Shown here one piece after another: positions 1,950 through 23,963 of a stretch of 64,000 nt of DNA. Position 1 is the stretch's first letter. Every line of letters begins with the position of its first letter. Position numbers and translations under genes: made by a program. The DNA comes from Chloroflexota bacterium (GTDB lineage: Bacteria > Chloroflexota > Anaerolineae > UBA4142), in the NCBI GenBank assembly GCA_016219275.1, contig JACRBM010000058.1:62001-126000 (forward strand). The letters are read 5' to 3'. The notes beneath the pieces were generated by a model. The model was not told where the DNA came from, ran no database searches, and saw only the letters and a program-made list of their open reading frames with translations.

Positions 1950-1966
1950 ATGGGAAAGAAAGATTA

Positions 1967-2031: not shown

Positions 2032-2065
2032 TAATTAATTTAATTTGTTGGGCTATGGGTGAAAA

Positions 2066-3070: not shown

Positions 3071-3087
3071 TGTCTAAACAAAAACGA

Positions 3088-3188: not shown

Positions 3189-3224
3189 AAATGTCTGTTT
3201 GGGTTTCTTGGAAAAGAGGAATAG

Positions 3225-3935: not shown

Positions 3936-4030
3936 CCTCACTCCCCTCCTCGCCTTCGGCACCTCTCCCCCCTCTCCCAATTGAACTTCATCGGGAGAGG
4001 GGGAAGGGGACGGGGGTAGGGGGTGAGGCA
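3936..4030. repeat. CCTCACYCCC...GGGGGTGAGG palindromic element
   Basis: The spacer begins with CCTCACTCCC and ends with GGGGGTGAGG, and inside it CCTCTCCC (3971-3978) pairs with GGGAGAGG (3993-4000). It is a pyrimidine/purine-biased hairpin element between two co-directional genes, and could act as a processing or attenuation structure. Confidence 0.55.
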
Positions 4031-4039
4031 GGAGCAACA

Positions 4040-5179
4040 ATGAACTGGCGTGTGCCACTCGCAGACCTGGATTACGGCGCGGAAGAAGAACGCGCCGCGC
4101 TCGATGTATTGCAAAGCCGCTGGCTCACGATGGGCGCGGTGACCCAGCAATTCGAACAAGAATTCGCCGCGTTCGTCGGCGTCAAGCACGCGCTCGCCGT
4201 TTCGAACGCGACGGTCGCGCTACACCTCGCGTGTCTCGCGCTCGGCATCGGGCGCGGCGATGAAGTGATCGCGCCCGCGCTCACCTTCGTCGCGACGACG
4301 AACGCCGTGTTGTACACTGGCGCGGACGTGCGTTTCGCGGAGATTCTCGGCGCGCACGATTTGAACATTGCGCCGGCGGAGATCGAAAAGCAGATCACGC
4401 CGCGCACGCGCGCGATCATCGTCGTGCATTACGGCGGGTATCCCTGCCAGATGGATGCCATCGCGAAAATTGCGTCCCGAAATAATCTGGCTATAATCGA
4501 GGACGCCGCGCACGCCCCCGGCGCGTCGTTGAACGGCAAGGTGTTGGGCGCGTGGGGCGACGTGGGCTGTTTCAGTTTCTTCTCGAATAAAAACCTCTCG
4601 ACCGGCGAAGGCGGCATGTTGGTGACGAACCGCGATGACGTGGCGGACTGCGTACGTCTGCGGCGTTCGCACGGCATGACGTCGCTGACCTGGGATCGGC
4701 ACCAGGGACACGCGTACACGTACGACGTGGTTGACCTGGGATACAATTATCGCATTGACGAAATTCACTCCGCGCTCGGACTGGCGCAATTACGAAAACT
4801 GCGCGACGGCAACGCGCGGCGCAAAGCGATCACGGAAAAATATTGGGAATGCTTGAGCGACTCGACGCTCGCGTTGCCTTTCCGTGAAACGCCGAGCCAA
4901 TCCTCTCACCATCTTTTTCCGATTCTCTTGCCAGAGCGGAGCGACCGTACGCGTTTCATGGATGCGCTGCGCGCGGCGCAAGTTCAATCGAGCATTCACT
5001 ATCCGCCGATTCATCAATTCAGCTACTATCGTAAACGCTATCCCGATATTGCGCTACCGACGACCGAGTCCGTTGCCGCGCGCCAGGTCACGTTGCCGCT
5101 CTATCCGACGATGAGCGACGCCCAGGTCGAACAGGTCATCTCCGCCACGCGCGCCGCGTTGCGCGCGGCGAGTCGGTAG
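4040..5179 (+). CDS. DegT/DnrJ/EryC1/StrS-family sugar aminotransferase
   Basis: At 379 residues this is a full-length fold-I PLP aminotransferase of the DegT family. The PLP lysine is K184 in FFSNKNLSTGEGG, preceded by the EDAAHAPGA cofactor-binding segment, and the SNATVALHLA phosphate-binding loop is near residue 55. These enzymes transfer an amino group, usually from glutamate, to a keto-sugar made by a 4,6-dehydratase, and the gene at 2066 encodes a suitable partner. CAGGAGC precedes the ATG. The downstream spacer holds a GCGGGCAG hairpin before the kinase gene, so co-transcription is likely. Confidence 0.9.
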   Translation: MNWRVPLADLDYGAEEERAALDVLQSRWLTMGAVTQQFEQEFAAFVGVKHALAVSNATVALHLACLALGIGRGDEVIAPALTFVATTNAVLYTGADVRFAEILGAHDLNIAPAEIEKQITPRTRAIIVVHYGGYPCQMDAIAKIASRNNLAIIEDAAHAPGASLNGKVLGAWGDVGCFSFFSNKNLSTGEGGMLVTNRDDVADCVRLRRSHGMTSLTWDRHQGHAYTYDVVDLGYNYRIDEIHSALGLAQLRKLRDGNARRKAITEKYWECLSDSTLALPFRETPSQSSHHLFPILLPERSDRTRFMDALRAAQVQSSIHYPPIHQFSYYRKRYPDIALPTTESVAARQVTLPLYPTMSDAQVEQVISATRAALRAASR

Positions 5180-5180
5180 C

Positions 5181-5197
5181 GCGGGCAGCCTGCCCGC
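5181..5197. repeat. Short GCGGGCAG palindrome
   Basis: GCGGGCAG and CTGCCCGC are perfect 8-bp complementary arms around one base, placed just after the aminotransferase stop and before the kinase start. It has no T-run, so it is not a standard terminator. Confidence 0.45.
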
Positions 5198-5224
5198 ACT
5201 AGAAAAAGAGTACTTGAGGTCAAC

Positions 5225-6856
5225 TTGGAACTGAGACAATATTTCGCATTATTCCGTAAATGGGCATGGTTGCTCGTTCTACTCAGCGCGCTCGCCGCCG
5301 GGTCGAGCTATGTGTACAGTTTGCAAATCCGTCCGATCTATCGCGCGGAGACGACGGTGCTCGTGGGGCAGACCGTGCAAAATCAGAATCCCTACATTGA
5401 TGCCGTCCAATCCGCGACGAATTTTGCAGGCGCGTATGCTTTGCTCGCGACCCAACCAACGGTCTTGCAAGCCACGGCGGAAGCGATCCAATGGTCGCAA
5501 CCCTGGCAGAATCTGTACTTTAAGGTTTCCGCCAAAGCCGGGGGCAGTCAGCTGATCCAAATCAGCGCGACCGACCCCGATCCCCAGCAAGCCAAAATCA
5601 TCGCGGATGAAGTTGCGCGTCAACTCATCGCCAAGGGACCGATCAGCGCGCAGCAGAAGCAATCGGAGGACCAGCGCGAGTTTGTGACCGCGCAACTCAC
5701 GCAGATCAAAGCCCAGGTCGAAAGCGCGCAGAAAACGTTGACCAATCTGACGAGCCAAGCCGCGCTCGAGAACGATCCGGTCAAACTCAACGAACTCAAC
5801 GCGCGCAGCGCCGCGTTACAATCCAAGATCGCAGATTGGCAACGGAACTATGCCTCGCTCTCCCAGTTGTTGCTCACCGGCGCGAACTTGTTTGTGACGG
5901 TGCTCGCGCCGGCGCAAGAACCGAAAATGCCGATCAGTCCCAACATTCCACAGAACGTCCTCTTTGCGATGATCGCCGGCGCGGTGCTTGCCGGCGGCGT
6001 CGCGTTTCTCCTCGAATATCTCGACGATACGGTCAAGGACGCGGACGACGCGCAACGCGTGATGGGCGTTTCGATGCTCGGCGCGATCATGCGGATCGCC
6101 GGCGTCCACCAGCCCGCCGATAATTTGGTGACGTTCAAGCATCCGCGCTCGCCGATCTCGGAAGCGTACCGCGTCTTGCGTACCAACTTGCGTTTCAGCG
6201 GGATCGAAAATCCGACCGGCGCGCTCGTCGTCACGAGCGCGAATCCCGGCGAAGGCAAGACGACGACCGCTGCGAACCTCGCGGTGACGATGGCGCAAGC
6301 CGGACGGCGCGTGGTTTTACTCGATACCGATTTGCGCCGACCGATGGTACACAAGTTGTTCGGTTTTTCGAACGAGGTCGGGTTGAGCAGTCTGTTCCTG
6401 GACGACGCGCCGGCGCTCGACCGCGTGATGCACCCGACCGCGATTGCGACTCTGCGCGTGATTACGAGCGGTCCGTTGCCGCCGAACCCCGCCGAGATGT
6501 TGGACTCGGCAGCGATGAAACAGATTCTTCACGATGTGCGCGCACAATCGGATATGGTCATCCTCGATTCGCCGCCGGCGCTCGCCGTCGCCGACGCGAG
6601 CATTCTCGGCGCGCAATGCTCCGGCGCGGTGATGGTGATTGATGCCGGGCGCACGCGCAGCGACGTTTCGCGGCGCGCGTTGCAAACGCTCAAACAGACC
6701 GGCGTCAAAGTGTTCGGCGTCGTGCTGAACAAACTCAGCACGCGGCGCGCGGGAGGGTATGCCTCCTACTATTATTATTCGTCCAAAGACAAAGAAACCA
6801 CAACGGTCGTGTCGCCGTCTCCGACAGAGCCGGTTCCGAGCGCGCCGCCCGAATAA
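5225..6856 (+). CDS. Wzz domain plus BY-kinase (exopolysaccharide tyrosine autokinase)
   Basis: The 543-residue protein joins a chain-length-determinant (Wzz) part to a bacterial tyrosine kinase. Transmembrane segments lie near residues 15-31 and 237-262, with a coiled-coil-like periplasmic region between. The cytosolic half has Walker A NPGEGKTTTA near 340, Walker A' VVLLDTDLRRP near 365 and Walker B MVILDSPPA near 442. The tail has a tyrosine cluster (YASYYYYSS), the usual autophosphorylation site. Such proteins control polymer length and export. The start is TTG, preceded by TTGAGG. Its position after the sugar-nucleotide genes supports a polymerising (Wzx/Wzy-like) glycan system. Confidence 0.9.
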   Translation: MELRQYFALFRKWAWLLVLLSALAAGSSYVYSLQIRPIYRAETTVLVGQTVQNQNPYIDAVQSATNFAGAYALLATQPTVLQATAEAIQWSQPWQNLYFKVSAKAGGSQLIQISATDPDPQQAKIIADEVARQLIAKGPISAQQKQSEDQREFVTAQLTQIKAQVESAQKTLTNLTSQAALENDPVKLNELNARSAALQSKIADWQRNYASLSQLLLTGANLFVTVLAPAQEPKMPISPNIPQNVLFAMIAGAVLAGGVAFLLEYLDDTVKDADDAQRVMGVSMLGAIMRIAGVHQPADNLVTFKHPRSPISEAYRVLRTNLRFSGIENPTGALVVTSANPGEGKTTTAANLAVTMAQAGRRVVLLDTDLRRPMVHKLFGFSNEVGLSSLFLDDAPALDRVMHPTAIATLRVITSGPLPPNPAEMLDSAAMKQILHDVRAQSDMVILDSPPALAVADASILGAQCSGAVMVIDAGRTRSDVSRRALQTLKQTGVKVFGVVLNKLSTRRAGGYASYYYYSSKDKETTTVVSPSPTEPVPSAPPE

Positions 6857-8794: not shown

Positions 8795-10012
8795 ATGAGC
8801 GAATGGCGAATAGCAAATGGCGAATGGCGGATGGCGAACAACTCTGAGCGTGTGTTGACGCAATTGATTCGCGCCGCGTTTCCGTTTGACGGTGACGCGA
8901 TTGGAATGCCTCAGGTTAACGCGGACGAGTGGATCGCCATCGCGCAGACTGCGCAACAACACAATCTTGCGCCATTGTTCTACGCGGCACTCTGGCGCTA
9001 TGACGGCGCGCCCGAACCGCCAGGCGCGCTCGTCGAATCGTTGCAGACGGCGTATCATCAAACGAAAATCGCGAACTGGGTCGCGTTCCGTGAGGTCGGC
9101 GAGTTGCTCGCCATCTTCGAGCGCGAAAAAATCCCGGCGGTGTTGCTCAAAGGCGCGGCGCTCGCGAACACGCTGTACCCCAACATCGCGATGCGTCCGA
9201 TGGGCGATATGGACATTTTGATTCACCGCGACGACGCGCCGCGCGTGAGCGACATTTTGACTGCGCGCGGTTTTACGACGACGTTAGAGCCAACCGAAAA
9301 TTTCTACACGCGCTTTTCATACGACCAGGCGTTCGAGCGCGTTGGCAAATATCCGCTGATGATCGAAATGCACTGGCATCTCTTCAACCTGCCGTACTAT
9401 CGCGAGCGAATCGCGATCGAGTGGTTTTGGCAACGCACGCTGCCGATGCGCGTGAACGATCAACCCGCGCGCGTGTTCGCGCCCGAAGCGCAGATCATTC
9501 ACCTTGCCGCGCACGCGGTTTTGCATCACCAGGGACACGGCTTACTCGCGGCGTACGACTTGGCGTTGGTGCTCGCGCGTTATCGCGAGCAGATCAACTG
9601 GGACGATGTGATCGAGTCCGCGCGCGCGTTTGGCTTGAGCCGCATCGTGCAGTCCAATCTCGCGCGCGTGGGAGATACCTGGGGTGTGTCCGTGCCGAAC
9701 GAGGTGCGCGCGCGATTGGCGCGCTCCGCCAGCGTGCGCGAACGTATCTTGTTCGCGATCAACACCGCGCCGCGCGTCGAGGCGCGCGATGTGTGGGATG
9801 GAATGAATCTGCCGAGCGGCAAATCGAGATGGCTGTACTTTTGGCACACCTTCTTTCCCAGCCGCGAATACATGCGGCAACGGTACGCCATCACCGACGC
9901 GCGCACATTGCCGTTGCATTATCTGCGGCGACTCGGCAGAGGCGCGGGCATGTTTGCCCAGTCCGCGGCGGCGATGGCGGGGAATGTGGTGAAGGTGTTG
10001 GGACGGACGTAA
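8795..10012 (+). CDS. Nucleotidyltransferase-fold family protein (NTP_transf_5-like)
   Basis: The 405-residue protein carries the signature of the uncharacterised nucleotidyltransferase family often found with exopolysaccharide and PqqD genes: LLKGAALANTLYP near residue 120 followed by RPMGDMDILI near 135, giving the D-x-D metal site. No transferase substrate is established for the family. The ATG at 8795 lies 3 bp after the previous stop, but the first 12 codons are a 7-bp tandem repeat (GAATGGC-like), so ATG 8831 may be the ancestral start. It is followed closely by a PqqD gene and the first radical SAM gene, which suggests it belongs functionally with the peptide-modification cassette. Confidence 0.7.
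   Translation: MSEWRIANGEWRMANNSERVLTQLIRAAFPFDGDAIGMPQVNADEWIAIAQTAQQHNLAPLFYAALWRYDGAPEPPGALVESLQTAYHQTKIANWVAFREVGELLAIFEREKIPAVLLKGAALANTLYPNIAMRPMGDMDILIHRDDAPRVSDILTARGFTTTLEPTENFYTRFSYDQAFERVGKYPLMIEMHWHLFNLPYYRERIAIEWFWQRTLPMRVNDQPARVFAPEAQIIHLAAHAVLHHQGHGLLAAYDLALVLARYREQINWDDVIESARAFGLSRIVQSNLARVGDTWGVSVPNEVRARLARSASVRERILFAINTAPRVEARDVWDGMNLPSGKSRWLYFWHTFFPSREYMRQRYAITDARTLPLHYLRRLGRGAGMFAQSAAAMAGNVVKVLGRT
8799..8837. repeat. Heptanucleotide tandem repeat (GAATGGC) at gene start
   Basis: Five units (GAATGGC, GAATAGC, AAATGGC, GAATGGC, GGATGGC) run in phase through the first codons of the gene at 8795. It encodes the odd N-terminus EWRIANGEWRMAN. Confidence 0.7.
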
Positions 10013-10053
10013 TACCGCTAAACTTGTTTCCTTTCGTGCGGCGAAACAATTGA

Positions 10054-10060
10054 CCAGGAG
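10054..10060 (+). promoter_or_regulatory. Ribosome binding site deciding a TTG start
   Basis: CCAGGAG at 10054-10060 is 7 bp upstream of TTG 10068 in the PqqD frame. The earlier in-frame TTG at 10050 lies before this site and has none of its own, so 10068 is preferred. Confidence 0.6.
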
Positions 10061-10067
10061 AATAACT

Positions 10068-10373
10068 TTGAAAGACACGGCGCTAAAATCACCGCGTTAC
10101 ATTATCAATCCCGATGTCGTTCTGCGCGAAGAAGATGAGGACGGTGGTCTGCTGTTCAATCCGGATACCAACCAAATTCGCGTGCTCAATCACACCGGCT
10201 TGTTCGTCTGGAAATTGTGCGACGGCGCGCACGACGCGCCGACCATCGCGAACGCGTTTTGCGATGTGTACGAGGACGTGCCGGAAGATCAGGTTGGCGC
10301 GCAAGTCAAGGTATTTATTGACGAGATGGTCGCGAACGGATTTATCGGCGTTGCGGAAGAACCATCTGCCTAG
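10068..10373 (+). CDS. PqqD-family peptide-binding protein (RRE), copy 1
   Basis: This 101-residue protein has the PqqD pattern: an N-terminal strand, the LFNPDTNQIRVLNHTGLFVWKLCDGAHDAPTIA-like core (residues about 28-58) and a C-terminal helix with VKVFIDEMVANGFI. PqqD proteins bind the leader of a ribosomally made peptide and present it to a radical SAM enzyme. A radical SAM/SPASM gene starts 11 bp downstream, so the two probably act together. It is about the normal PqqD length. The nearest candidate substrate is the Cys-rich peptide at 13487. The start chosen is TTG 10068, on the strength of the AGGAG site. Confidence 0.82.
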   Translation: MKDTALKSPRYIINPDVVLREEDEDGGLLFNPDTNQIRVLNHTGLFVWKLCDGAHDAPTIANAFCDVYEDVPEDQVGAQVKVFIDEMVANGFIGVAEEPSA

Positions 10374-10384
10374 AAAATCAAACT

Positions 10385-11482
10385 GTGAGCAACTCGCCAA
10401 CCTTGCCTCCCCCGCGTAATATGAATATCGCGCTCACGGGTCGTTGCAATCTGCGTTGCCAGTACTGTTTCTACGCGGACGAAATGACCGCGCTGCGCGA
10501 TCTGCCGACCGAACGCTGGCTCGCGTTCTTCGCGGAACTGGGGCGCTTGAAAATCATGGACGTGACGCTCACCGGCGGCGAAGCGTTTACGCGTCCCGAC
10601 CTATTCGATTTGATTGACGGCATCATTGCGAACCGAATGCGCTATAGCATCTTGAGCAACGGCACACTGATTGACGAAACGATGGCGGCGAAGTTCGAGA
10701 TCGGGAAACGCCGCCGGCGATTGAATTACATCCAGGTCTCGATGGATGGTTCATGCGCGGAGATTCACGACCAGAGTCGCCCGAACAGTTTCGCGCGTGC
10801 GGTGCGCGGTTTGCGTTTGCTCAAACAAGCCGGCTTGCCAATTACGGTACGCACGACGATCAACCGGCACAATCTCCACGATTTGGAAAACATCGCGTGC
10901 CTGCTACTCGACGACATCGGCTTGGCGTCGTTCAGCACGAACGAGGCAATGCCGATTGGCGCAGGGTGCGAGAACCAGGGCGACGTGTCGCTCACGTCGC
11001 GCGAAAAAGCGGAAGCGATGGAGATCATCGCGCGCTTGCTCGAACGCTACCCCGGTCGTCTCACCGCGAACGCGGGACCGCAAGCCAAGCGCAAGGCATA
11101 CGCGGAGATGGAACACGCGCGGCGCACCGGCGAGAAATCCGCCGGGTGGACGATGGGCTACTTGACCGCGTGTGGCTGCATCTTTTCCAATATGGATATT
11201 TTGCACGACGGCACGATCGTTCCGTGCCACATGTTGTCCGGCTTGACGCTGGGCAACATCGCGACCGATTCGCTCGAAGCGATTTGGCAAACGCATCCGA
11301 CGTTGCGCGCATTACGCGAACGTCGCGCGATCCCGATGCAGCAGGTTGCCGGTTGCGCGAGTTGCGAGTGGGCGTCGTACTGCAACGGAAGTTGCCCCGG
11401 CTTGGCGTACCAATTGACCGGCGATTTCAACCGCGCGAATCCCGAAGATTGCTATCGCCATTTTTTGATAGAGACCACGTAA
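10385..11482 (+). CDS. Radical SAM/SPASM peptide maturase 1
   Basis: The 365-residue enzyme has the 4Fe-4S motif C21-x3-C25-x2-C28 (GRCNLRCQYCFYAD), the LTGGEAF glycine-rich motif near 60 and ILSNGTL, then a C-terminal SPASM region with Cys-rich CASCEWASYCNGSCPG. SPASM enzymes install thioether, carbon-carbon or epimerised residues in peptides using S-adenosylmethionine. It follows a PqqD gene by 11 bp and precedes a second maturase. The pair and the neighbours recall the ScmE/ScmF enzymes of the cassette named SynChlorMet in TIGRFAMs; that match is from memory and not searched. The start is GTG, with no strong ribosome site, so translation may be coupled to pqqD. Confidence 0.87.
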   Translation: MSNSPTLPPPRNMNIALTGRCNLRCQYCFYADEMTALRDLPTERWLAFFAELGRLKIMDVTLTGGEAFTRPDLFDLIDGIIANRMRYSILSNGTLIDETMAAKFEIGKRRRRLNYIQVSMDGSCAEIHDQSRPNSFARAVRGLRLLKQAGLPITVRTTINRHNLHDLENIACLLLDDIGLASFSTNEAMPIGAGCENQGDVSLTSREKAEAMEIIARLLERYPGRLTANAGPQAKRKAYAEMEHARRTGEKSAGWTMGYLTACGCIFSNMDILHDGTIVPCHMLSGLTLGNIATDSLEAIWQTHPTLRALRERRAIPMQQVAGCASCEWASYCNGSCPGLAYQLTGDFNRANPEDCYRHFLIETT

Positions 11483-11483
11483 C

Positions 11484-11542
11484 GCAAATTGGAAATTTGC
11501 GCCACAATATGGAGATGACGTAGGGCAAATTTCCAATTTGCC
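11484..11542. repeat. GCAAATT-palindrome doublet
   Basis: GCAAATTGGAAATTTGC (11484-11500) and GGCAAATTTCCAATTTGCC (11524-11542) are palindromes, each followed by CACAATAYGGAGA. The second copy provides the GGAG that serves the next gene as ribosome site, so a repeat unit seems to have been co-opted for translation. Confidence 0.6.
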
Positions 11543-11564
11543 GCACAATACGGAGACAAACCTA

Positions 11565-12719
11565 GTGACCACAACTTGCGATCCAATAACCCCCGCGCAA
11601 ACCATCGCGCCGATACAACTCGATTTGCCCGAAGGCGTCCCGCCGCTCACCTCATTGTACGTGTATGCCGCCGGTTCGTGCAACCTGGCTTGCCGGCATT
11701 GTTGGATCGTGCCCAAGTTTCAACCGGACGGCGACGGCGGTCCATACGTCAAACTGGAATACGTCGAGAAAGCGATCCGCGAGGGCAAACCGCTGGGCTT
11801 GCGCTCGATCAAATTAACCGGCGGCGAACCGATGTTGCACCCGCAATTCCGTGAACTTGTTTCTTTGATTAACGATGCCGGATTGGATATCGTCATCGAG
11901 ACGAACGGAACGTTGGTGGATGATACGCTTGCGAAATTCCTGAAAGAAAAATCCCGCGTCTGTTTTATCTCTGTCAGTCTGGACGGCGTCAAGCCGGAAA
12001 CGCACGATGCGTTGCGGAGTGTGCCAGGAAGTTACGACCGTGCGGTTGCCGGGATCAAGAACCTGGTCGCAGTGGGATTTCGCCCGCAAGTGATTTGTAC
12101 GCTGCACAGGGGCAACGTCTCTGAGATGGCGGAGGTTGTGTCGCTCGCGGAAAAACTGGGGTGTGGCTCGGTCAAATTCAACCATGTTCAGCAGACTGGT
12201 CGCGGCGAAAGATTCTGCGATGACCAGGGTTTGGATGTTGTGGAGATTATCCAACTGTATCGCCGCATCGAAGATGAGATCGCGCCGCAAAGCCGAGTGC
12301 CGATTCATTTTGATATTCCCTTTGCATTCTTCCCGATTCGTAAACTGCTCAACGATGCGCTTGGCAGATGCACGGTCAAGAATATCCTCGGAATGTTGGC
12401 GACTGGCGAACTAGCGTTGTGTGGAATTGGCACGACAATCCCGGAATTGATTTATGGTCATGCCGAGACGAATGACTTGTATGAGGTGTGGTGTACTAGC
12501 CCTGGGCTTGTGCGTCTGCGCGAGCAAATTCCGTTGCGGTTGGAAGGAATCTGCGCGCAATGTCTTCATCGCGATATATGTCAGGGCGAGTGTGTGGCGA
12601 ATAATTTTCACGTTGCTGGAAAGTTGAATGCTCCGTACTATTTTTGTGATCGCGCGAATGACCTGGGATTATTCCCACCGCCCAGAAACAAACAGCCGGT
12701 TGTGGCTGTGTGTGGATAA
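11565..12719 (+). CDS. Radical SAM/SPASM peptide maturase 2
   Basis: The 384-residue enzyme has C39-x3-C43-x2-C46 (GSCNLACRHCWIV), LTGGEPM near 84 and ETNGTLV, and a C-terminal Cys set with CAQCLHRDICQGECVANNF and a final YYFCD. It is clearly distinct from maturase 1 in sequence and resembles the ScmF type (recalled, not searched). GTG 11565 is preferred to the upstream TTG 11538 because CGGAG lies about 9 bp before it; the upstream extension is inside the palindromic repeat. It lies between maturase 1 and the S26 peptidase, so it probably acts on the peptide encoded at 13487. Confidence 0.86.
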   Translation: MTTTCDPITPAQTIAPIQLDLPEGVPPLTSLYVYAAGSCNLACRHCWIVPKFQPDGDGGPYVKLEYVEKAIREGKPLGLRSIKLTGGEPMLHPQFRELVSLINDAGLDIVIETNGTLVDDTLAKFLKEKSRVCFISVSLDGVKPETHDALRSVPGSYDRAVAGIKNLVAVGFRPQVICTLHRGNVSEMAEVVSLAEKLGCGSVKFNHVQQTGRGERFCDDQGLDVVEIIQLYRRIEDEIAPQSRVPIHFDIPFAFFPIRKLLNDALGRCTVKNILGMLATGELALCGIGTTIPELIYGHAETNDLYEVWCTSPGLVRLREQIPLRLEGICAQCLHRDICQGECVANNFHVAGKLNAPYYFCDRANDLGLFPPPRNKQPVVAVCG

Positions 12720-12812: not shown

Positions 12813-13436
12813 ATGCGCGATGGAACACTCACCTGCTATTATCGCGGCGACAGCATGCGCGGCACATTTCGCCTCGGTGACCGCTTGCTCATCGCGCCAA
12901 TGTCGCTTGGCGAGATTCGTCTTGGCGATGTTGTCGTCTTTCGCGCGACAAACCAGCGCGACGCGGCGGACGAAATCGTGCATCGCGTTGTCGCCATCAC
13001 GTCTGCGGGCTTGGTAACACAAGGCGACAACAATCCTTGTTGCGACGCGTTCCCGGTAACCGCCGACAACTTGATCGGGCGTGTGACGCGCGCCGAACGC
13101 GATGGCAAGACGCGTTCGGTGCGCGGTGGGCGAATCGCGCTCGCGCGGGTCTGGCTCGCGCGTGCCAGGCGTCACGTTCGGCGAGACGCGTGGCAACTGA
13201 TCACGTGGTCTGGGTATCGCGTCTATCGCTGGTTGCGCGATACGCGCATCGTTGCGCGCCTCTGGCACCCCGCGATCACGCAACTCACACTGACGACCGA
13301 GCAAGGACGCGTGGTCAAGTACGTGCTGCATGGGCGCACCATCGCCCGTTGGTGGCAACATACCAATCGCTTTGAGTGTGACAAACCGTACGATCTCATC
13401 CTCTCTCGACCCGATCCATCCGGTCGCAGAGTGTAG
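12813..13436 (+). CDS. S26-type signal-peptidase-like protein
   Basis: The first 100 residues of this 207-residue protein match the S24/S26 Ser-peptidase core: YRGDSMRGTF with the candidate nucleophile Ser14, a LGDVVVFR strand, and HRVVAIT followed by TQGDNN. The His in place of a Lys general base is the arrangement of archaeal/ER-type (SipW-like) signal peptidases. The C-terminal 100 residues are Arg-rich and unassigned. No clear transmembrane helix is seen, so it may act on the inner face or as a leader protease. It sits between the two maturases and the candidate precursor, which suggests it cleaves the leader. The ribosome site is weak. Confidence 0.68.
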   Translation: MRDGTLTCYYRGDSMRGTFRLGDRLLIAPMSLGEIRLGDVVVFRATNQRDAADEIVHRVVAITSAGLVTQGDNNPCCDAFPVTADNLIGRVTRAERDGKTRSVRGGRIALARVWLARARRHVRRDAWQLITWSGYRVYRWLRDTRIVARLWHPAITQLTLTTEQGRVVKYVLHGRTIARWWQHTNRFECDKPYDLILSRPDPSGRRV

Positions 13437-13486: not shown

Positions 13487-13753
13487 GTGAAAAAGAAAAA
13501 TGGGCGACCGGTCTACGAGCCGCCACGCGCGCGCGATTTATCTACTCCCACCGCGAGCGGACTCGGTCCGCTGGGGATGTGCCTTGACGGCAGTACGCCG
13601 GCGGTAGAAACGTGTACCAACGGTTTTTTCCCGGCGCAAGACCCTTCGTTGTGTAGTCCAGCCGGCGCGGCGCCGCGCTGGGCGGGTTGCGCGAACGGCT
13701 CGATTCCATTCGCAGTGTGCTCGAACGGTTCAGCAGTGCCACGCGGCGGTTAG
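13487..13753 (+). CDS. Candidate modified-peptide precursor with repeated Cys-x-(Asn/Asp)-Gly motif
   Basis: This 88-residue peptide has a basic leader (MKKKNGRPVYEPP) and a core with five cysteines at 32, 43, 56, 68 and 78, spaced 11, 13, 12 and 10 apart. Four of them sit in C-x-(D/N)-G (CLDG, CTNG, CANG, CSNG); the other is CSPAG. It ends in PRGG. There are no membrane segments and no known enzyme domain. Two radical SAM maturases, a PqqD and a peptidase are upstream and an HPr-kinase-like gene and an ABC exporter are downstream. This resembles the small ScmA-type peptide of the recalled SynChlorMet cassette. GTG 13487 follows ACGGAAG; GTG 13481 is also possible. That it is expressed and modified is inference. 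Confidence 0.62.
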   Translation: MKKKNGRPVYEPPRARDLSTPTASGLGPLGMCLDGSTPAVETCTNGFFPAQDPSLCSPAGAAPRWAGCANGSIPFAVCSNGSAVPRGG

Positions 13754-13798: not shown

Positions 13799-14737
13799 TT
13801 GTTCACCCAAACGCATCAAATCGCCGGCGTCACGTTTCACACTCAAGCCGAAACGACATTTCCCTTTCAAGACGCGTTCGCGCCTTTTCAAACGAACGCG
13901 CGCGCCAGTGATGTGCGTTGCCGGGCGCAGGTCGTTTCGCTCGACGCGTCGGCGATGCTCCCACTGACCTTGCCACCCGCTCGCCGCATCTCGCGCGACG
14001 TGGTTTTCTCGCGCGAAGAGTGGACCACCCCGCTCTTGCGTTCGCCGCTTGTGCAACACCGCTTGTGGGCGTCGCTCAATCAGCCAGAGCACAACCGCGT
14101 CGAGTTGCGCGACTGGGCAGTGACGCTGTTCGATTTCGCGCGGCGCGAAGTGGCATTATTCCACACGCTGGAGCATGACGAATTTCTCGCGCAGTGTTAC
14201 GTGGGTCCCAGTTTGTTCGCGCCCTTTTTGCCGACGTTCGACGCGATGATGCTGCACAGTTCCGCCGTCGTCGTCGGTCAAGTCGCCGCGCTATTCTTTG
14301 CGCCGGACGAAGGCGGCAAGACGACGGTCGCGCGCACCGCGCCGCGCGCGGCGATTTTGTGCGACGATCAAAATATCATTCGCCAAACCGGCAACGCATT
14401 TGTTGTTCACAGCACGCCCTGGGGTTTGTATCACGATGGTCCGCGCGCCGCGCCGTTGGGCGGTATGTTCTTCTTGGAAAAGGCGGATCGCTTTGAACTG
14501 ATTCCGCTGAAACGCACGGAGGCGATGGCGCACATTTGGAACGAGCACGCGAGTTTTCTCGCCGTGTTGCCCAAGCATCTGCGCGTGCGCGCGTTCGATC
14601 TCGTGTGCGAGGCGTGTCGCGCGGTTCCGACGTATCGAATGCGTTTCCCCAAAGATGGTGTGGATTGGCGCGCGATTGGCGCGGTGATGGAGAGGACCGC
14701 ATCGAACGTGACAAGTCGTATCTCAGGAGAGACGTGA
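13799..14737 (+). CDS. HPr-kinase-like P-loop protein, copy 1 (ScmC-like)
   Basis: The 312-residue protein has a P-loop variant, APDEGGKTTVA (near residue 170), preceded by MMLHSSAVVV, the layout of the HPr kinase-like proteins found with PqqD in peptide and glycan clusters. After it comes ILCDDQNII, a Walker-B-like segment. It is not a true HPr kinase, since it lacks the rest of that enzyme and no HPr is nearby; a role in phosphorylating a peptide or carrier has been suggested for lasso-peptide relatives. The start is TTG 13799. The stop overlaps the start of the exporter gene (GTGA), so the two are co-translated. A second copy lies at 19513. Confidence 0.65.
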   Translation: MFTQTHQIAGVTFHTQAETTFPFQDAFAPFQTNARASDVRCRAQVVSLDASAMLPLTLPPARRISRDVVFSREEWTTPLLRSPLVQHRLWASLNQPEHNRVELRDWAVTLFDFARREVALFHTLEHDEFLAQCYVGPSLFAPFLPTFDAMMLHSSAVVVGQVAALFFAPDEGGKTTVARTAPRAAILCDDQNIIRQTGNAFVVHSTPWGLYHDGPRAAPLGGMFFLEKADRFELIPLKRTEAMAHIWNEHASFLAVLPKHLRVRAFDLVCEACRAVPTYRMRFPKDGVDWRAIGAVMERTASNVTSRISGET

Positions 14738-16566
14738 CCACCTGGCTTGCCTATCTCAGACAAGGACTCGCGCGCACGTCGCCGGCGGACCGGCTCGCCG
14801 GGCGCGGGGGTTACGCCGGTGCAAAAGCGAATCTCAAGAATCTACAACCGTTCGTCGCGCGGCACTGGCGGCAAGGCGCGCTCGGCGCGCTCCTCATCCT
14901 TTTCAATGCGCTTCTCGCGTTTCCCGATCCGCTCATCTATCGTTTTCTGATTGACGATGTGATCCTGGGTCGGCAATTGAACTTGCTCGTCATCGCGCTC
15001 GGTCTGCTCGCCGTCATCAAGGTATTCGCGATGGCGTCCGGCACGTTACAGCAATTCTTCTTTACGCGCTTTGAACAGCAAGTGCTCCTCGACATTCAGC
15101 GCGATCTGCTCGACCGCACGCTGCGTTTCCCCAAATCGTTCTTTGACGACAAAGAGGTCGGCTATTTGATGTCGCGCTTGCTCTCGGACGTGCAGGGCTT
15201 GCGCTGGTTCTTTTCTAGCACGCTCGTCTATATCGTGACGAACGTTCTGCGTTTCATCGGCGGCGTCGCGTTCCTGTTTTATCTCGAATGGAAACTCGCG
15301 CTCGTCACCTTGATCGTACTCCCCGCGCTCGTATTTGCCGTGCGCTATTTCTCCGCCAAGCTGCGCGTCCTGAGTCACGCCAGCATGGAGCGGCAGGCGA
15401 ACGTCACGCGCACAATGCAAGAATCGCTCTCCGCGACCGCGCTCATCAAAGCGTTCGCGTCCGAAAAGCGCACCGTCGCGCAGGTGATGGAGCAACTGAA
15501 TGCCGCGCGGCAAATCGCGATGGAACAGATGACGGTCGGCACGCTCGCGAACCTCGCCATCGGTATTCTGCCGGACGCCGCGCGCGCGGTCGTGCTGATC
15601 GCCGGCGCGGTCTGGGTCATTCAGGGCGAATGGACGCTCGGCTCGCTCCTCGCGTTTCAAGCGTACCTGGGTTACGTGTACGGTCCCGCGCTTTTCCTCG
15701 CCTCCGCGAATCTGCAATTGCAAAACGCGCTCGCCGCGCTCGAACGCGTTTCGACCTTGTTCGACATCGTGCCGGAAGAAAACCTGGGTGTAGGCAAACG
15801 CGTCGCACGCTTGCGCGGCGAGATCGAATTCAGGAATGTGTCGTTCGCGTACAACGGCAGTGAGCCGGTCATCGAGGAAGTGTCGTTTTGCGCGCAACCC
15901 GGCGAACGCATCGCAATTGTCGGACCGAGCGGCGTCGGCAAGACAACGCTGTTGAGTTTGCTTCTGCGATTCTACAAACCGACGCGCGGCGAGATTTGCT
16001 TCGATGGCATCCCCGCTTCCGAGTACGCGCTTGGTTCTCTGCGCGAGCGCATCGGGTACGTCGCGCAGAGCACGGTGTTGCTTGCGGGCACGATGATGGA
16101 GAATTTGCGGTACGGCAATCCCGAAGCGAGCGAGCACCAAGTGATGCGCGCCGCGCAGATCGCCGGCATCCACGCGTTCATCGCCGATCTGCCGCACGGC
16201 TATCAATCCCAGGTCGGCGAGCGCGGCGTGAATTTATCGGAAGGACAGAAACAGCGGCTCGCCATCGCGCGCGCGCTGATCAAAGACCCGGACATTTTGA
16301 TCTTGGACGAGCCGACCGCCGCGCTCGACGGCTTGATCGAGCGATCCATCTTCGACGCGTTGCCGGAATTCGTGCGCGGGAAAACCTTGTTCGTCGTCGC
16401 GCACCGGCTCGCGACGATTCAAAACGCCGATCGCATTTTGTTGTTGAATGAAAAACGTTTGGTCGCGTCCGGCACGCATCGCGAATTGAGCGCGCACAGC
16501 GAGTTCTATCGCGCGCTCGTCGCGACCCAGCAATTCACCAACCCGGCAATCGCGCCGGTCTCGTAA
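14734..16566 (+). CDS. ABC transporter, membrane and ATPase domains in one chain
   Basis: The 610-residue half-transporter has six predicted membrane segments in residues about 50-320 and an ATPase domain with Walker A GPSGVGKTT near 400, signature LSEGQKQRL near 502 and Walker B ILILDEPTAALD. It should work as a homodimer exporter in the inner membrane. It has no N-terminal C39 peptidase domain, so any leader cleavage would be done by another protein, such as the S26-type one at 12813. GTG 14734 overlaps the previous stop and follows AGGAGA; the frame is open upstream but that part lies inside the preceding gene. Its place suggests export of the modified peptide, although lipid or glycan export is also possible. 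Confidence 0.88.
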   Translation: MTTWLAYLRQGLARTSPADRLAGRGGYAGAKANLKNLQPFVARHWRQGALGALLILFNALLAFPDPLIYRFLIDDVILGRQLNLLVIALGLLAVIKVFAMASGTLQQFFFTRFEQQVLLDIQRDLLDRTLRFPKSFFDDKEVGYLMSRLLSDVQGLRWFFSSTLVYIVTNVLRFIGGVAFLFYLEWKLALVTLIVLPALVFAVRYFSAKLRVLSHASMERQANVTRTMQESLSATALIKAFASEKRTVAQVMEQLNAARQIAMEQMTVGTLANLAIGILPDAARAVVLIAGAVWVIQGEWTLGSLLAFQAYLGYVYGPALFLASANLQLQNALAALERVSTLFDIVPEENLGVGKRVARLRGEIEFRNVSFAYNGSEPVIEEVSFCAQPGERIAIVGPSGVGKTTLLSLLLRFYKPTRGEICFDGIPASEYALGSLRERIGYVAQSTVLLAGTMMENLRYGNPEASEHQVMRAAQIAGIHAFIADLPHGYQSQVGERGVNLSEGQKQRLAIARALIKDPDILILDEPTAALDGLIERSIFDALPEFVRGKTLFVVAHRLATIQNADRILLLNEKRLVASGTHRELSAHSEFYRALVATQQFTNPAIAPVS

Positions 16567-18050: not shown

Positions 18051-18053
18051 ATT

Positions 18054-18088
18054 TGGAATTTGGAACTTGCAACTTCCAACCTCTAAAC
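18054..18088. repeat. Heptanucleotide tandem repeat (AATTTGG-like)
   Basis: Units AATTTGG, AATTTGG, AACTTGC, AACTTCC, AACCTCT lie between the cyclase stop and the next start. The frame of the next gene is open through it from TTG 18053, but the repeat is likely non-coding. Confidence 0.6.
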
Positions 18089-18103
18089 TCTATCCATGGT
18101 GAA

Positions 18104-19507
18104 ATGATCGTTCTGACCAACCGCATCTCGCGCAGCGCCAGGTTTCTGCAACGCCGGCGATGGCTCATCTTGATGCTGGTCGCGCCCTTTTTATTTTTCC
18201 CCTCCCCTGATATCGCGCTCGCGCTTGTCATCGTGCCGGGGCTGTGGATTATTTTTTGGTTGGCGGGCGAGCAACCGTTTGCGCGCACACCGCTGAATCC
18301 GGCGCTGCTTGTGCTTTGCCTGATGATGCTGGTCAGTCTCGGCGTGACGTACGATGTAGGTGTGAGTCTGCCGAAAATTGCCGGCTTGATCCTGGGTATC
18401 GGCGTGTTCGATGGTTTTGCCAGTTATGCAAAGAGTCCGCGCGGTTGGTGGCTGTGCTTCCTGGTGTTCTTGCTCGCGGGACTGGGTGTCGCGGTGATCG
18501 GTTTGCTGGGCACGCAGTGGGCGATCAAGTTCGATGCGCTCGTGCCTTTCACTTATCGCTTTGAGCCGCGCATCGTCGGTCTGCCCGGCGCGGAAAAGGG
18601 CATTAGCCCGAACGAAGTTGCCGGCGCGCTGTTGTGGGTGATCCCGTCCTGGTTCGCATTCTGGTTGATCGGGTTGACGCAACTGAAACACCAAACCCCT
18701 GTGCCGCGCCGATGGCTTGCGCCGATCAACTTGCTGATCGGTGAAGCCCTGTTGTTTGTCGTTTTAGTTTTCCTGTTGTGCCAATCGCGGAGTGCGTATC
18801 TAGCCCTTGCCGTCGCGACCGTCTTGTTGGTTCTGTGGTTGGTTCGGCATCGTTCGCGATTGTTCGCGGGCATTTTGATCGCCATCGGAATCCTGCTCGT
18901 GACCTTCGCGTGGCGCTACGAAACCGACCCGTTGTTGCGCGAGGCGCTTGGCTCGTTCAGCATCGGCGGCGCATCGGTCTCGCTCGATACGTTCAACGGT
19001 CGCGCGGTCGTGTGGTCGCGCGCACGGATGGGCATCGAGAAATATCCGCTCACGGGCATGGGGATGAATACGTTTCGTTACCTCGTGAATACGCTTGAGC
19101 CGGACGATCCAATTTACGTCGGGCGCGATATCGCGCACGCGCACAACGAGTATTTCCAAGCCGCGCTCGACCTGGGAATTCCTGGGTTGCTCGCACTGGT
19201 CGGAATCTACGCAATCGCGTTTTGGATGTTGCGCCAAGTGTGGCGTCAAGCGACGTGGAAATCTGCCGGCGCGCCAGACTCCACTTGGTTGACGCCGCGC
19301 GTCACCCAGGTGCTCGTCCTGGGATTGGGACTTGGCTTGTTCGCGCACCTGCTGTACGGATTGACCGAGGCAGTCGCGTTGGGCGCTAAACCGGGCATCT
19401 TGTTTTGGATGCTCCTCGGGTTGGTGGCGGGGTTGTATCAGCAAGAAGAAATCGGCTCGCGGGTTTTGGCGAATAAAAACCATCCGCGTCCTGAATTACC
19501 AGGTTAA
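18104..19507 (+). CDS. O-antigen ligase/polymerase-like membrane protein (Wzy_C)
   Basis: The 467-residue protein has about 11-12 hydrophobic segments and a large extracytoplasmic loop before the last ones. The motif NGRAVVWSRARMGIEKYPLTGMGMNTF followed by AHAHNEYFQAALDLGIPGLL is the Wzy_C/O-antigen ligase hallmark, with Arg and His residues used in glycan transfer. It likely polymerises the glycan or joins it to an acceptor such as a surface protein, at the outer face of the membrane. ATG 18104 is chosen because the frame upstream is a heptamer repeat. It is the only polymerase/ligase seen in the window, so it probably serves the glycan made by the 0.3-7 kb genes. Confidence 0.85.
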   Translation: MIVLTNRISRSARFLQRRRWLILMLVAPFLFFPSPDIALALVIVPGLWIIFWLAGEQPFARTPLNPALLVLCLMMLVSLGVTYDVGVSLPKIAGLILGIGVFDGFASYAKSPRGWWLCFLVFLLAGLGVAVIGLLGTQWAIKFDALVPFTYRFEPRIVGLPGAEKGISPNEVAGALLWVIPSWFAFWLIGLTQLKHQTPVPRRWLAPINLLIGEALLFVVLVFLLCQSRSAYLALAVATVLLVLWLVRHRSRLFAGILIAIGILLVTFAWRYETDPLLREALGSFSIGGASVSLDTFNGRAVVWSRARMGIEKYPLTGMGMNTFRYLVNTLEPDDPIYVGRDIAHAHNEYFQAALDLGIPGLLALVGIYAIAFWMLRQVWRQATWKSAGAPDSTWLTPRVTQVLVLGLGLGLFAHLLYGLTEAVALGAKPGILFWMLLGLVAGLYQQEEIGSRVLANKNHPRPELPG

Positions 19508-19512: not shown

Positions 19513-20337
19513 GTGCCTGCGATGCCAAATGTGATCGAACTTGATATTGCCGGAATTCGCGTCGCGCTTGATATCGCGGATGCGGCGATGCGCGTCAAGG
19601 TGCGCGAACGCTACGCGGCGTTTATCGTCGCCGAGGGACGACCGCAAGTTCGCGTGCGCGTGGAGGTCGTCGCCGAGGCACGATTTGTGCCGGCGCGTCC
19701 AGGACCTTGGGTCATCGAAACTGCGCTCGCGGGCAATCGCCTGACCTATCGTTCGTACTTTGATGCCGGGTGGGTAGACCTTGACGGCGGCGAGGGCGCG
19801 GTCAAGATCGCGCCGCACGCCGATGTCGAAAACTTTTTGCGCGTGCTGTACGCGCATCTCTGTTTGCGCGCAGGCGGACTGTTGCTGCACGCGGCGGGCG
19901 TGGTCAGAGATCAGGCGGGCTATGTGTTCTTCGGCGAGTCCGGCAGCGGCAAGACCACCACCGCGCGGTTATCGCTCGACCTGGGATGCGCGGTGTTGAG
20001 CGACGACCTGGTTATCCTCAAAAAAGACGGCGACTCGTTTCGTGTGTTCGGGGTGCCTTTTCGCGGTGAGATGATGGAAGCGCCCCGGACGAATCTTTCC
20101 GCGCATCTGGCGGGACTGTATGCGCTCGCCAAGGACACGCGCCATTACCTCGCGCCGGTCGTTTCATCGCGCGGCGTGTCCCGGCTCGCAGCGTGTGTGC
20201 CCTTTGTGATGAGCCAGCCGGCTAATGCCGGACGCGTAATGAAAATTTGCGCAGACTTGGTCGCGCATGTCCCAGTCCGCGAGTTACACTTTAGCCGCGA
20301 TGACGGCTTTTGGAAGGTGATTGATGAACTTGACTAG
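19513..20337 (+). CDS. HPr-kinase-like P-loop protein, copy 2
   Basis: The 274-residue protein has a classical Walker A, FGESGSGKTTTARL near residue 140, preceded by LLLHAAGVV and followed by AVLSDDLVIL, the pattern of HPr-kinase-like proteins paired with PqqD. It is a diverged paralogue of the protein at 13799, which has a degenerate P-loop. Its last 14 bases overlap the PqqD gene start, a gene pair seen in lasso-peptide and exopolysaccharide clusters. It may phosphorylate or otherwise handle a peptide or carrier; no substrate is known. GTG 19513 is used; ATG 19522 is a close alternative. Confidence 0.7.
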   Translation: MPAMPNVIELDIAGIRVALDIADAAMRVKVRERYAAFIVAEGRPQVRVRVEVVAEARFVPARPGPWVIETALAGNRLTYRSYFDAGWVDLDGGEGAVKIAPHADVENFLRVLYAHLCLRAGGLLLHAAGVVRDQAGYVFFGESGSGKTTTARLSLDLGCAVLSDDLVILKKDGDSFRVFGVPFRGEMMEAPRTNLSAHLAGLYALAKDTRHYLAPVVSSRGVSRLAACVPFVMSQPANAGRVMKICADLVAHVPVRELHFSRDDGFWKVIDELD

Positions 20338-20617
20338 TTATCCCGTGCCGCATTCCCAGGTTGCCGCGCAGATCGTGGATGATGAGGCGGTGATCGTTTT
20401 GGCGGATGCCGGTGAAGTGACCGTGTTGAACCCGGTGGGTACGCGCGTATGGGAATTGATAGACGGCGCGCACACGGTTCAGCAGATGGTGAACGTGATT
20501 GCGGATGAATTTGAAGTGACGCCCGAACAAGCGCGAGAAGATGTGGAAGAGTTTTTGGAAACGTTAGCGCAAAACAAGATGGTAGTGTTTGATGACACAC
20601 CACGTCACCCAAGTTGA
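20324..20617 (+). CDS. PqqD-family protein (RRE), copy 2
   Basis: The 97-residue protein shows the PqqD core VLADAGEVTVLNPVGTRVWELIDGAHTVQQMVNVI followed by a C-terminal helix with VEEFLETLAQNKMV. It should bind a leader peptide. The start ATG 20324 overlaps the end of the HPr-kinase-like gene and has GGAAGGTGA upstream. There is no radical SAM gene directly beside it; the nearest is at 23982, past two surface-protein genes, and the nearest short peptide is at 25343. Pairing with those is inference. Confidence 0.8.
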   Translation: MNLTSYPVPHSQVAAQIVDDEAVIVLADAGEVTVLNPVGTRVWELIDGAHTVQQMVNVIADEFEVTPEQAREDVEEFLETLAQNKMVVFDDTPRHPS

Positions 20618-22451: not shown

Positions 22452-23963
22452 ATGCTTCGACCCTATTCAGATCGGCTACGCACGCGTCTAGTTCGCTCCC
22501 TAGTTTTTGCCACGTTCTTGCTCGTACTCGGTATCCTCTTACTTGCTCTGCCCACAGCAGAACCCGTGTTCGCGGCAAGCGTAGGGATTGATCAGTGCGC
22601 CAATGGTGTTGCGGGTACCAATCCCCAGAGTTGTTCTTGGACAACCGGTATCGTCGGCAACTCCAATTCGTCGTACATCGAAGGTATGGCAAGCCCGCAG
22701 CGGTTTCTCTTGTCCAACTTGTACAGCGGTTCCGCCGGCAGTCAATGCAACAACACCACAAGGGTTTGTAACTTGACCTTTTCCGCGAGTTGGACTGATG
22801 GAACGAAACATGGCTACGACATGCTTGTTTCGTGGGACCAAGCCGTCGTGATCAATAAGCAGATCGCCGGCGTTTCCAATTTCTATCTAAATCCATGCGC
22901 CGGTTACAACCCCGGCGATACGGCTACCTGTACGGATGTTTATACGACGAACCAAAACATCTATAACGTTCCCTTGCCGGATGATTCATTTGTAAGCGGA
23001 TCGTTTCAGGTGGATGGAAGCACGCAATCGCGCATTAACGCGTTCGAAGGATTGTATGGTGACCGTCAACTTCGCATCTATGCCAACCAACCGATTACCA
23101 GCGCGGTCATGCTCCTATCCCATTGCACGAATAATCTTTCTTCCTGCGGCATTGCCAACGGCTCAGATACCTCTGGGCAGACCGTGATCTCATACACGTT
23201 GATCTATACGACGAATGCAACCGATGCACTTGTGACCTTCGCGGGTCATTTTGCGTTGAGTGGTAACCCGCGCATCAATCCGCTGACATGGGGTTATTCG
23301 AACGGCTCTGGCGCGATCGGTGGCGCATCCTGGCATGTGAAGGACCCAAAACTCAACTATACGGGTGGTAGTCAGGATAATCAGGCGCAATTGTTCGAGG
23401 GAAGCGCGTATCCGATTGACAGTGGTACCCGCGCCGGCGGCGGCACGGTGACGAGCGGAGCAATTACCGACACGGTGTGGATGACGAATACAGCCGCGGG
23501 CGCATCTGACATTGTTGGCAATGTTCATTTCTATGTCTGCGCGGATACCATCGTTCCGTTTTCGCCTCCACTATCCTCCACGCTTCCGTATGGATGTCTC
23601 ACGACAACAAGTGGTGCGGGCTATACGGTAACCGACATTGGCACCAAGACCTTGAACGTTGTCAACGCGGGAAATAAAAAGAATAGTTCGGTAACATCGG
23701 CGGTTTATACACCGACATTCGCCGGACGTTATTGCTTCTTGACGGTGTTCACTCCAACGGATGCAATTCCTTACAACTATAACGTCATGTCCGACACGAA
23801 CAGCACAAGCGAGTGTTTTGAGTATAACAATCCTACGCCACTTGGCGTGTACTCATTGAGCGCGAGCAGTGGCACGGATTGGACGATGATGGTCGTCGCC
23901 TTTGGGTTGCTCGGCATCGTTGTGAGCGTTGGCGTTCTGAAGTTTGGCTGGCGTCGCAACTAG
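22452..23963 (+). CDS. Exported Cys-containing surface protein with C-terminal anchor
   Basis: The 503-residue protein has a basic N-terminus and signal peptide (hydrophobic about 17-35, cut near PVFAA), a body rich in Thr, Ser, Asn and Gly with about 14 cysteines, and a C-terminal helix (MMVVAFGLLGIVVSVGVLKF) ending in GWRRN. No known enzyme motif is seen. Like the protein at 20696, it ends in a hydrophobic anchor and Arg-Asn, so both may be handled by the same anchoring or processing machinery. It lies directly upstream of a radical SAM maturase, a short peptide and the C25 peptidases. A strong AAGGAGA site precedes the ATG. Confidence 0.7.
   Translation: MLRPYSDRLRTRLVRSLVFATFLLVLGILLLALPTAEPVFAASVGIDQCANGVAGTNPQSCSWTTGIVGNSNSSYIEGMASPQRFLLSNLYSGSAGSQCNNTTRVCNLTFSASWTDGTKHGYDMLVSWDQAVVINKQIAGVSNFYLNPCAGYNPGDTATCTDVYTTNQNIYNVPLPDDSFVSGSFQVDGSTQSRINAFEGLYGDRQLRIYANQPITSAVMLLSHCTNNLSSCGIANGSDTSGQTVISYTLIYTTNATDALVTFAGHFALSGNPRINPLTWGYSNGSGAIGGASWHVKDPKLNYTGGSQDNQAQLFEGSAYPIDSGTRAGGGTVTSGAITDTVWMTNTAAGASDIVGNVHFYVCADTIVPFSPPLSSTLPYGCLTTTSGAGYTVTDIGTKTLNVVNAGNKKNSSVTSAVYTPTFAGRYCFLTVFTPTDAIPYNYNVMSDTNSTSECFEYNNPTPLGVYSLSASSGTDWTMMVVAFGLLGIVVSVGVLKFGWRRN

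What the first reader, a model, noticed from the sequence alone, without database searches (positions are those of the whole stretch)
13487..13753. Precursor candidate with five Cys and four C-x-(D/N)-G repeats
The 88-residue peptide has a basic leader and regularly spaced cysteines (10-13 residues apart), four of them as CLDG, CTNG, CANG, CSNG. A repeated motif of this kind is what a processive thioether- or crosslink-forming radical SAM enzyme would act on. Two maturases are available next to it.
Basis: partly seen in the sequence, partly recalled or inferred. Interest (0 to 1): 0.7.

Follow-up and report, generated by a model that had tools for sequence, protein, structure and literature searches.

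The report
Repeat-cysteine precursor of a radical-SAM peptide cassette
The small gene is a genuine precursor of a ribosomal peptide natural product whose regularly repeated Cys-x-x-Gly units are very probably modified by two radical enzymes encoded beside it; the same peptide-and-enzyme set occurs in many bacterial phyla and some archaea, but nobody appears to have determined the chemistry.

Summary
The ORF (GTG 13487 to 13753, 88 aa) has five Cys at spacings of 11, 13, 12 and 10. Homologues show the true motif is C-x2-3-G, not C-x-(D/N)-G, so all five Cys fit (four CxxG, one CxxxG). The two rSAM/SPASM genes upstream are ScmE (over NCBIfam's cut-off) and ScmF-like, i.e. a divergent SynChlorMet cassette. 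Among 62 ScmE loci from other genomes (Chloroflexota, Acidobacteriota, Verrucomicrobiota, Caldifarciminota, methanogens and others), 44 carry a small ORF with the same leader (Y-x-x-P...L) and 3-9 such Cys repeats. Of 264 core Cys, 257 are CxxG or CxxxG. In 98 relatives, precursor and ScmE occur in exactly the same four genomes. Close pairs show purifying selection. NCBIfam already names a ScmA precursor (TIGR04252), but that 49-aa model misses this peptide. The cassette also encodes a PqqD-type chaperone, an HPr-kinase/PEPCK-fold kinase, an S26 Ser-His protease, a nucleotidyltransferase and an ABC exporter. Precursor status and pairing are well supported. Cys-based thioether formation is the likeliest chemistry but is inferred. 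This is a new variant of a catalogued but, as far as found, experimentally unstudied kind of RiPP.

The parts
13487..13753 (+). ScmA-like precursor peptide, 88 aa: leader VKKKNGRPVYEPPRARDLS, core with five C-x2-3-G repeats
10050..10373 (+). PqqD-family peptide chaperone, ScmD-like (RRE-type leader binder)
   Evidence: PF05402 over cut-off; TIGR04248 66.9 bits, below cut-off 100
10385..11482 (+). radical SAM/SPASM maturase ScmE
   Evidence: TIGR04250 404 bits, cut-off 400; CxxxCxxC at C21/C25/C28 plus SPASM Cys 263, 281, 324, 327, 333, 337, 356 conserved in 95-100% of 60 aligned sequences
11538..12719 (+). radical SAM/SPASM maturase, ScmF-like
   Evidence: TIGR04251 372 bits, cut-off 400; CxxxCxxC at C48/C52/C55 plus Cys 278, 295, 339, 342, 348, 352, 370 conserved in 93-96% of 54 aligned sequences
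12813..13436 (+). S26-family (signal-peptidase-like, Ser-His) protease, likely leader protease
   Evidence: TIGR02228 over cut-off; S14, H57, D72 invariant; profile hits SEC11A/C at about 6e-14
13799..14737 (+). ScmC-like HPr-kinase/PEPCK-fold kinase
   Evidence: TIGR04249 32.9 bits, below cut-off; profile hits PEPCK and HprK at about 1e-5; model pLDDT 90, PEPCK Z 14.3
14734..16566 (+). ABC exporter (permease-ATPase) without a C39 peptidase domain
   Evidence: PF00664 and PF00005; GTG start at 14734 overlapping the ScmC stop
8795..10012 (+). nucleotidyltransferase of family NTP_transf_5, recurrent near ScmE in other loci
   Evidence: PF14907 6.7e-58; tblastn hits in many ScmE loci

Best explanation
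13487-13753 encodes a ScmA-like RiPP precursor of a divergent SynChlorMet-type cassette. SHOWN by sequence comparison: a conserved leader (Y-x-x-P-x-x-x-x-L, then G/S) followed by repeated C-x2-3-G units about 10-12 residues apart; strict co-occurrence with ScmE; neighbours that are a PqqD-type chaperone, two SPASM radical SAM enzymes with complete cluster ligands, an HprK/PEPCK-fold kinase, an S26 Ser-His protease and an ABC exporter. INFERRED: ScmD binds the YxxP leader and presents the core to ScmE and ScmF, which modify the Cys of each repeat. The likeliest modification (about 0.55 on its own) is a thioether from Cys to a backbone or near-backbone carbon within the repeat, i.e. sactipeptide- or ranthipeptide-like. 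The kinase, and perhaps the nucleotidyltransferase, decorates the peptide as the K and N enzymes do in phosphoglycosylated lasso peptides. The S26 protease removes the leader and the exporter secretes the product.
For: Synteny: 44 of 62 ScmE loci outside the window carry such an ORF, mostly just after ScmF, and 14 of 17 genomes whose fetched locus lacked one have a match to the precursor profile elsewhere (most of the ORFs read). Co-occurrence: in 98 relatives ScmE and precursor profile are in exactly the same four genomes, p about 3e-7. Decoy rSAM loci: none, best E 1.5 in 3992 ORFs. Motif: 257 of 264 core Cys are CxxG or CxxxG, 203 of 212 Cys spacings are 9-14. Selection: dN/dS about 0.1-0.35 in the close orthologous pairs, Cys kept 4/4, 6/6, 6/6. 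Homology to the catalogued ScmA: L058 precursor matches TIGR04252 at 2.5e-4 over positions 1-45 of 49. Enzyme competence: cluster ligands, protease residues, kinase fold. Leader and K/N parallel to lasso peptides: PMC10368454 and PMC8498205.
Against: The window peptide does not match the curated ScmA model, and ScmF, ScmD and ScmC fall below their curated cut-offs. No acceptor residue besides Gly is conserved, so thioether formation is not pointed to by a specific acceptor motif. Three of the 17 genomes had no detectable precursor at E 0.001. One within-locus paralogue pair keeps only 4 of 6 aligned Cys. No expression, mass or structural data on the product.
Confidence: 0.85

Rival explanations
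1. It is the precursor, but the radical SAM enzymes do something other than a thioether at the repeats (for example epimerisation, C-C or C-N bonds, or Gly/Ala alpha-carbon chemistry), and the Cys serve as free thiols, disulfides or metal ligands in the exported peptide.
For: Gly at +3/+4 and Ala/Pro at +6 are conserved besides Cys; the nearest curated models of ScmE and ScmF include heme-pathway and Trp-Gly-Lys-linking enzymes as well as sactipeptide maturases.
Against: Cys is the one strictly retained reactive side chain of each repeat. SPASM enzymes with full auxiliary ligands acting on Cys-containing precursors have thioether precedents (review PMC8326336).
Confidence: 0.3
2. The product is a small redox cofactor excised from the precursor, as in PQQ or mycofactocin, and the repeats give several copies.
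For: PqqD-type chaperone and PqqE-like rSAM enzymes.
Against: 3-9 variable repeats, two different precursors in several loci, and an ABC exporter plus kinase in the cassette. No dedicated excising peptidase other than the S26 protease was seen.
Confidence: 0.07
3. The repeats are sites of Cys to formylglycine conversion by an anaerobic sulfatase-type rSAM enzyme.
For: Anaerobic sulfatase maturases are SPASM enzymes and match weakly.
Against: No CxPxR or CxAxR motif in any of 54 precursors.
Confidence: 0.02
4. The ORF is a chance open frame and the Cys pattern a coincidence of composition.
For: GTG start, no Pfam or NCBIfam hit for the window peptide.
Against: Syntenic homologues, exact co-occurrence with ScmE, purifying selection in homologues, shuffle tests.
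Confidence: 0.01

Closest known systems
SynChlorMet cassette (NCBIfam TIGR04248-TIGR04252: ScmD, ScmC, ScmE, ScmF, ScmA precursor)
   Same: ScmE over cut-off; ScmF, ScmD and ScmC best or sole hits to the matching models; some homologous precursors align with the ScmA model from the leader through several CxxG repeats.
   Different: ScmF, ScmD and ScmC are below the curated cut-offs and the window precursor has no hit to the ScmA model; the precursor has five repeats in 88 aa where the ScmA model has 49 positions; S26 protease, nucleotidyltransferase and exporter genes are in the same run of genes.
Sactipeptides (subtilosin/AlbA, SkfA/SkfB, thuricin CD/TrnC-TrnD, ruminococcin C)
   Same: Cys-containing precursor next to one or two SPASM radical SAM maturases; acceptor side chains need not be conserved.
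   Different: Linkage unproven; tandem CxxG repeats along the whole core; separate PqqD chaperone with a YxxP leader; donor Cys not grouped in the N-terminal half.
Ranthipeptides (freyrasin/PapB, SCIFF/CteB)
   Same: Regularly repeated Cys along the core and SPASM maturase.
   Different: Only 14 CxxxD/E occurrences in 54 precursors; Asp/Glu at most about 12% at any position relative to Cys.
Phosphorylated and phosphoglycosylated lasso peptides (paeninodin, pseudomycoidin)
   Same: Leader of YxxP type, discrete PqqD-like chaperone, HprK-type kinase, nucleotidyltransferase, ABC exporter.
   Different: Two radical SAM enzymes and an S26 protease; no lasso cyclase or B2 protease recognised among the cassette proteins; leader +5 is mostly Ala/Ile/Ser/Val rather than Leu.

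Membership tests
SynChlorMet cassette | ScmE over curated cut-off (TIGR04250, 400 bits) | tested here: met
   404 bits
SynChlorMet cassette | ScmF over curated cut-off (TIGR04251, 400 bits) | tested here: not met
   372 bits, but best family by more than 240 bits
SynChlorMet cassette | ScmD (TIGR04248, 100 bits) and ScmC (TIGR04249, 125 bits) over cut-off | tested here: not met
   66.9 and 32.9 bits, each still the best family
SynChlorMet cassette | precursor matches ScmA model TIGR04252 (35 bits) | tested here: not met
   no hit for the window even at E 10; a homologue reaches 21.2 bits, E 2.5e-4
SynChlorMet cassette | two different SPASM enzymes plus PqqD plus precursor in one gene run | tested here: met
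Sactipeptide | Cys S to alpha-carbon thioether in the product | not testable with these tools
   needs mass spectrometry or NMR
Sactipeptide | maturase with rSAM motif and SPASM auxiliary-cluster Cys, adjacent Cys-containing precursor | tested here: met
Ranthipeptide (PapB type) | repeated C-x3-D/E donor-acceptor motif | tested here: not met
   14 occurrences in 54 precursors
Ranthipeptide | non-alpha-carbon thioether in the product | not testable with these tools
   needs mass spectrometry or NMR
Lasso peptide | leader motif YxxPxL | tested here: not met
   Y 98% and P 100% kept, but Leu at +5 in only 4%; window has Ala
Lasso peptide | lasso cyclase and B2 protease in the cluster | tested here: not met
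   no such family among the cassette proteins scanned
Formylglycine substrate | CxPxR or CxAxR motif | tested here: not met
   0 in 54 precursors

The most novel reading that the evidence does not exclude
A RiPP class shared by bacteria and methanogenic archaea that joins a lasso-type chassis (YxxP leader, PqqD chaperone, HprK kinase, nucleotidyltransferase) to two radical SAM enzymes making a repeat-by-repeat Cys-to-Gly (or neighbouring backbone) crosslink not seen before, giving an exported, phospho-glycosylated, cell-surface peptide often encoded within polysaccharide loci.
Probability: 0.15. Interest if true: 0.8.

Novelty: new variant of a known kind. Interest (0 to 1): 0.58.

Why it matters
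It ties a widespread but, as far as found, experimentally unstudied pair of radical SAM enzymes (ScmE/ScmF) to a concrete substrate with a clear repeat grammar, from about a dozen lineages including archaea, so the chemistry becomes directly testable by coexpression. The curated ScmA model recognises almost none of these precursors, so many are probably invisible in current annotation. The shared kinase and nucleotidyltransferase suggest that decoration modules are exchanged between lasso and radical-SAM peptide systems.

Tried and rejected
Direct protein search of the window peptide in 60 relatives gave only chance-level matches besides itself; the family became visible through ScmE loci. Plasmid search: no match. 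Papers mentioning SynChlorMet, ScmE/ScmF or TIGR04248-TIGR04251: none in the library, so the absence of published work is only known for that library. TIGR04252 searched in 16 genomes, most with ScmE: no match over cut-off. CxxxD/E ranthipeptide and formylglycine motifs rejected. ABC-transporter C39 peptidase as leader protease rejected for lack of that domain. For ScmC, the rows shown by the structure searches were nearly all PEPCK; HPr kinase appeared in the sequence-profile search. No structure was predicted for the precursor, ScmE or ScmF.

Full report
Observation. The frame 13487-13753 (+) translates as described. Cys lie at 32, 43, 56, 68 and 78. GTG 13487 is preceded by GGAAG at a 5-nt distance; another in-frame GTG lies at 13481. 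Shuffling gives p = 0.0009 for four CxxG and 0 of 200,000 for four Cx[DN]G. The window has no other ORF like it and the precursor profile finds only this place in the genome.

Neighbourhood. NCBIfam assigns 10385-11482 to ScmE above its cut-off (404 against 400 bits). Its best families for the others are ScmF for 11538-12719 (372, below 400), ScmD for 10050-10373 (66.9, below 100) and ScmC for 13799-14737 (32.9, below 125). 12813-13436 is an archaeal/ER-type signal-peptidase-like S26 protease, 14734-16566 an ABC exporter without C39 domain, 8795-10012 an NTP_transf_5 nucleotidyltransferase. This is a divergent form of what NCBIfam calls the SynChlorMet cassette. No paper in the library mentions it.

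Homologues. An ScmE alignment used against 84,980 genomes gave 62 real ScmE loci (44-81% identity) and 18 distant rSAM loci that serve as decoys. Small ORFs with the same leader and Cys repeats appear in 44 of the 62, usually just downstream of ScmF and before the kinase and S26 genes. One example is L036, MKKRVYEAPVARDLSGLGASGQGPLGNCRTG..., against the window's VYEPPRARDLSTPTASGLGPLGMCLDG. The same leader profile found nothing in the decoys (best E 1.5 in 3992 ORFs). Several loci have two precursors. Some locus ids from different tools repeat the same contig (L033/L036, L010/L032/L052, L121/L090); the count of 62 uses only L035-L096.

Independent test. ScmE was sought in 99 relatives by its family model and the precursor by its own profile in 98. 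Both are in exactly G000, G401, G448 and G458 (chance about 3e-7). The profile was built from an alignment that includes the window and a relative of G401, but not G448 or G458. In 17 genomes whose fetched ScmE locus lacked a precursor, 14 have a profile match elsewhere; most of the matching ORFs were read and show leader and repeats, for a few the reading script found no ORF. ScmE is sparse: 3 of 400 phylum genomes. The ScmE tree mixes phyla and places methanogens in two spots, which suggests horizontal spread, though bins can hold foreign contigs.

Grammar of the peptide. In 52 precursors, 264 core Cys: 206 CxxG, 51 CxxxG, 7 neither; 203 of 212 spacings are 9-14. In the window the third Cys is CSPAG, so all five fit. 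The leader has Tyr (98%), Pro at +3 (100%), Leu at +8 (81%), then Gly or Ser. The first Cys comes 16-23 residues after the Tyr in nearly all, with Gly or Ala at -2 (72%) and Ala, Gly or Val at -4 (60%). That weakly fits a signal-peptidase-like cut; the window itself has Pro at -4. Asp/Glu are nowhere above about 12% relative to Cys, CxxxD/E occurs 14 times, CxPxR/CxAxR never.

Selection. Orthologous pairs L058/L089 and L075/L080 (two precursors) have dN/dS of roughly 0.11, 0.35 and 0.26 with all Cys kept. More distant pairs also have pS above pN. The paralogue pair L081 a/b keeps 4 of 6 by global alignment.

Enzymes. ScmE and ScmF each keep CxxxCxxC and seven further Cys suited to two auxiliary clusters. 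Nearest solved relatives by sequence are PqqE and SkfB for ScmE, and cytosylglucuronate decarboxylase, SkfB and PqqE for ScmF. The S26 protein keeps Ser14, His57 and Asp72 in all aligned homologues and its profile matches SEC11. ScmC keeps His153, Gly173 and Lys174, matches PEPCK and HPr kinase by profile, and its model (pLDDT 90) aligns with PEPCK at Z 14.3 over 235 residues, rmsd 4.2.

Mechanism. Shown: gene association, conserved leader and repeats, competent-looking enzymes. Inferred: ScmD binds the leader (PqqD family knowledge); ScmE and ScmF act on the repeated Cys; the kinase and nucleotidyltransferase decorate (by analogy with paeninodin and pseudomycoidin, PMC8498205); S26 cleaves; ABC exports. 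Thioether formation is favoured because Cys is the only strictly kept reactive side chain and SPASM enzymes with such precursors have that precedent (PMC8326336). The lack of a conserved acceptor side chain fits alpha-carbon chemistry better than CxxxD-type chemistry. This step stays untested.

Comparison. NCBIfam has a ScmA precursor model, TIGR04252. It misses the window peptide and matches 4 of 53 family members at E 0.01 or better; those seen one by one are below the cut-off, the best being L058 at 2.5e-4 across nearly the whole model. So the kind is catalogued and this is a divergent variant in a family much wider than the model. The lasso resemblance (YxxP leader, K, N, chaperone, exporter) is in working parts, not membership: the strict YxxPxL motif and lasso enzymes are absent.

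Context. Polysaccharide genes flank the cassette (321-6856 and 18053-19507), as in 14 of 62 ScmE loci and 0 of 18 decoys, so a surface role is possible but unproven.

Verdict. A real precursor in a real cassette.

Noticed in passing
19513-20617 and 23982-25166: A second HprK-related kinase, a second PqqD-type chaperone and a third SPASM radical SAM enzyme, with two secreted proteins of about 500 aa between them; no YxxP/CxxG precursor was found for this set.
   Followed up: partly
321-6856 and 18053-19507: Exopolysaccharide genes (sugar transferase, epimerase, nucleotidyl transferase, DegT aminotransferase, Wzz-type chain-length kinase, Wzy/O-antigen ligase) enclose the peptide cassette; the same kinds of neighbours recur at other ScmE loci.
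   Followed up: partly
L049 7662-9083, L051 7662-9083: In some Verrucomicrobiota and Kiritimatiellota ScmE is fused to an N-terminal PqqD-like stretch, and the precursor lies outside the fetched 8-kb flanks (for L049 about 15 kb away on what appears to be the same contig).
   Followed up: partly
L120 1-8500: One genome carries two ScmE/ScmF-type cassettes side by side, with two different precursors (951-1202 + and 5010-5252 -).
   Followed up: no
L084 8235-8480 (-): Precursor with almost perfect 10-11 residue repeats, C-R-x-x-G-N-T-A-x-G-N, a good minimal substrate for testing the maturases.
   Followed up: no
22452-23963: Secreted protein of 503 aa whose presumed mature part begins near QCANGVAGTNPQSCSWTTG, a local echo of the CxxG motif in a protein that is not a precursor; probably coincidence.
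   Followed up: no
34393-35646: Another protein with a CxxxC radical-SAM-like motif (SRCNIVCRT) far from the cassette.
   Followed up: no
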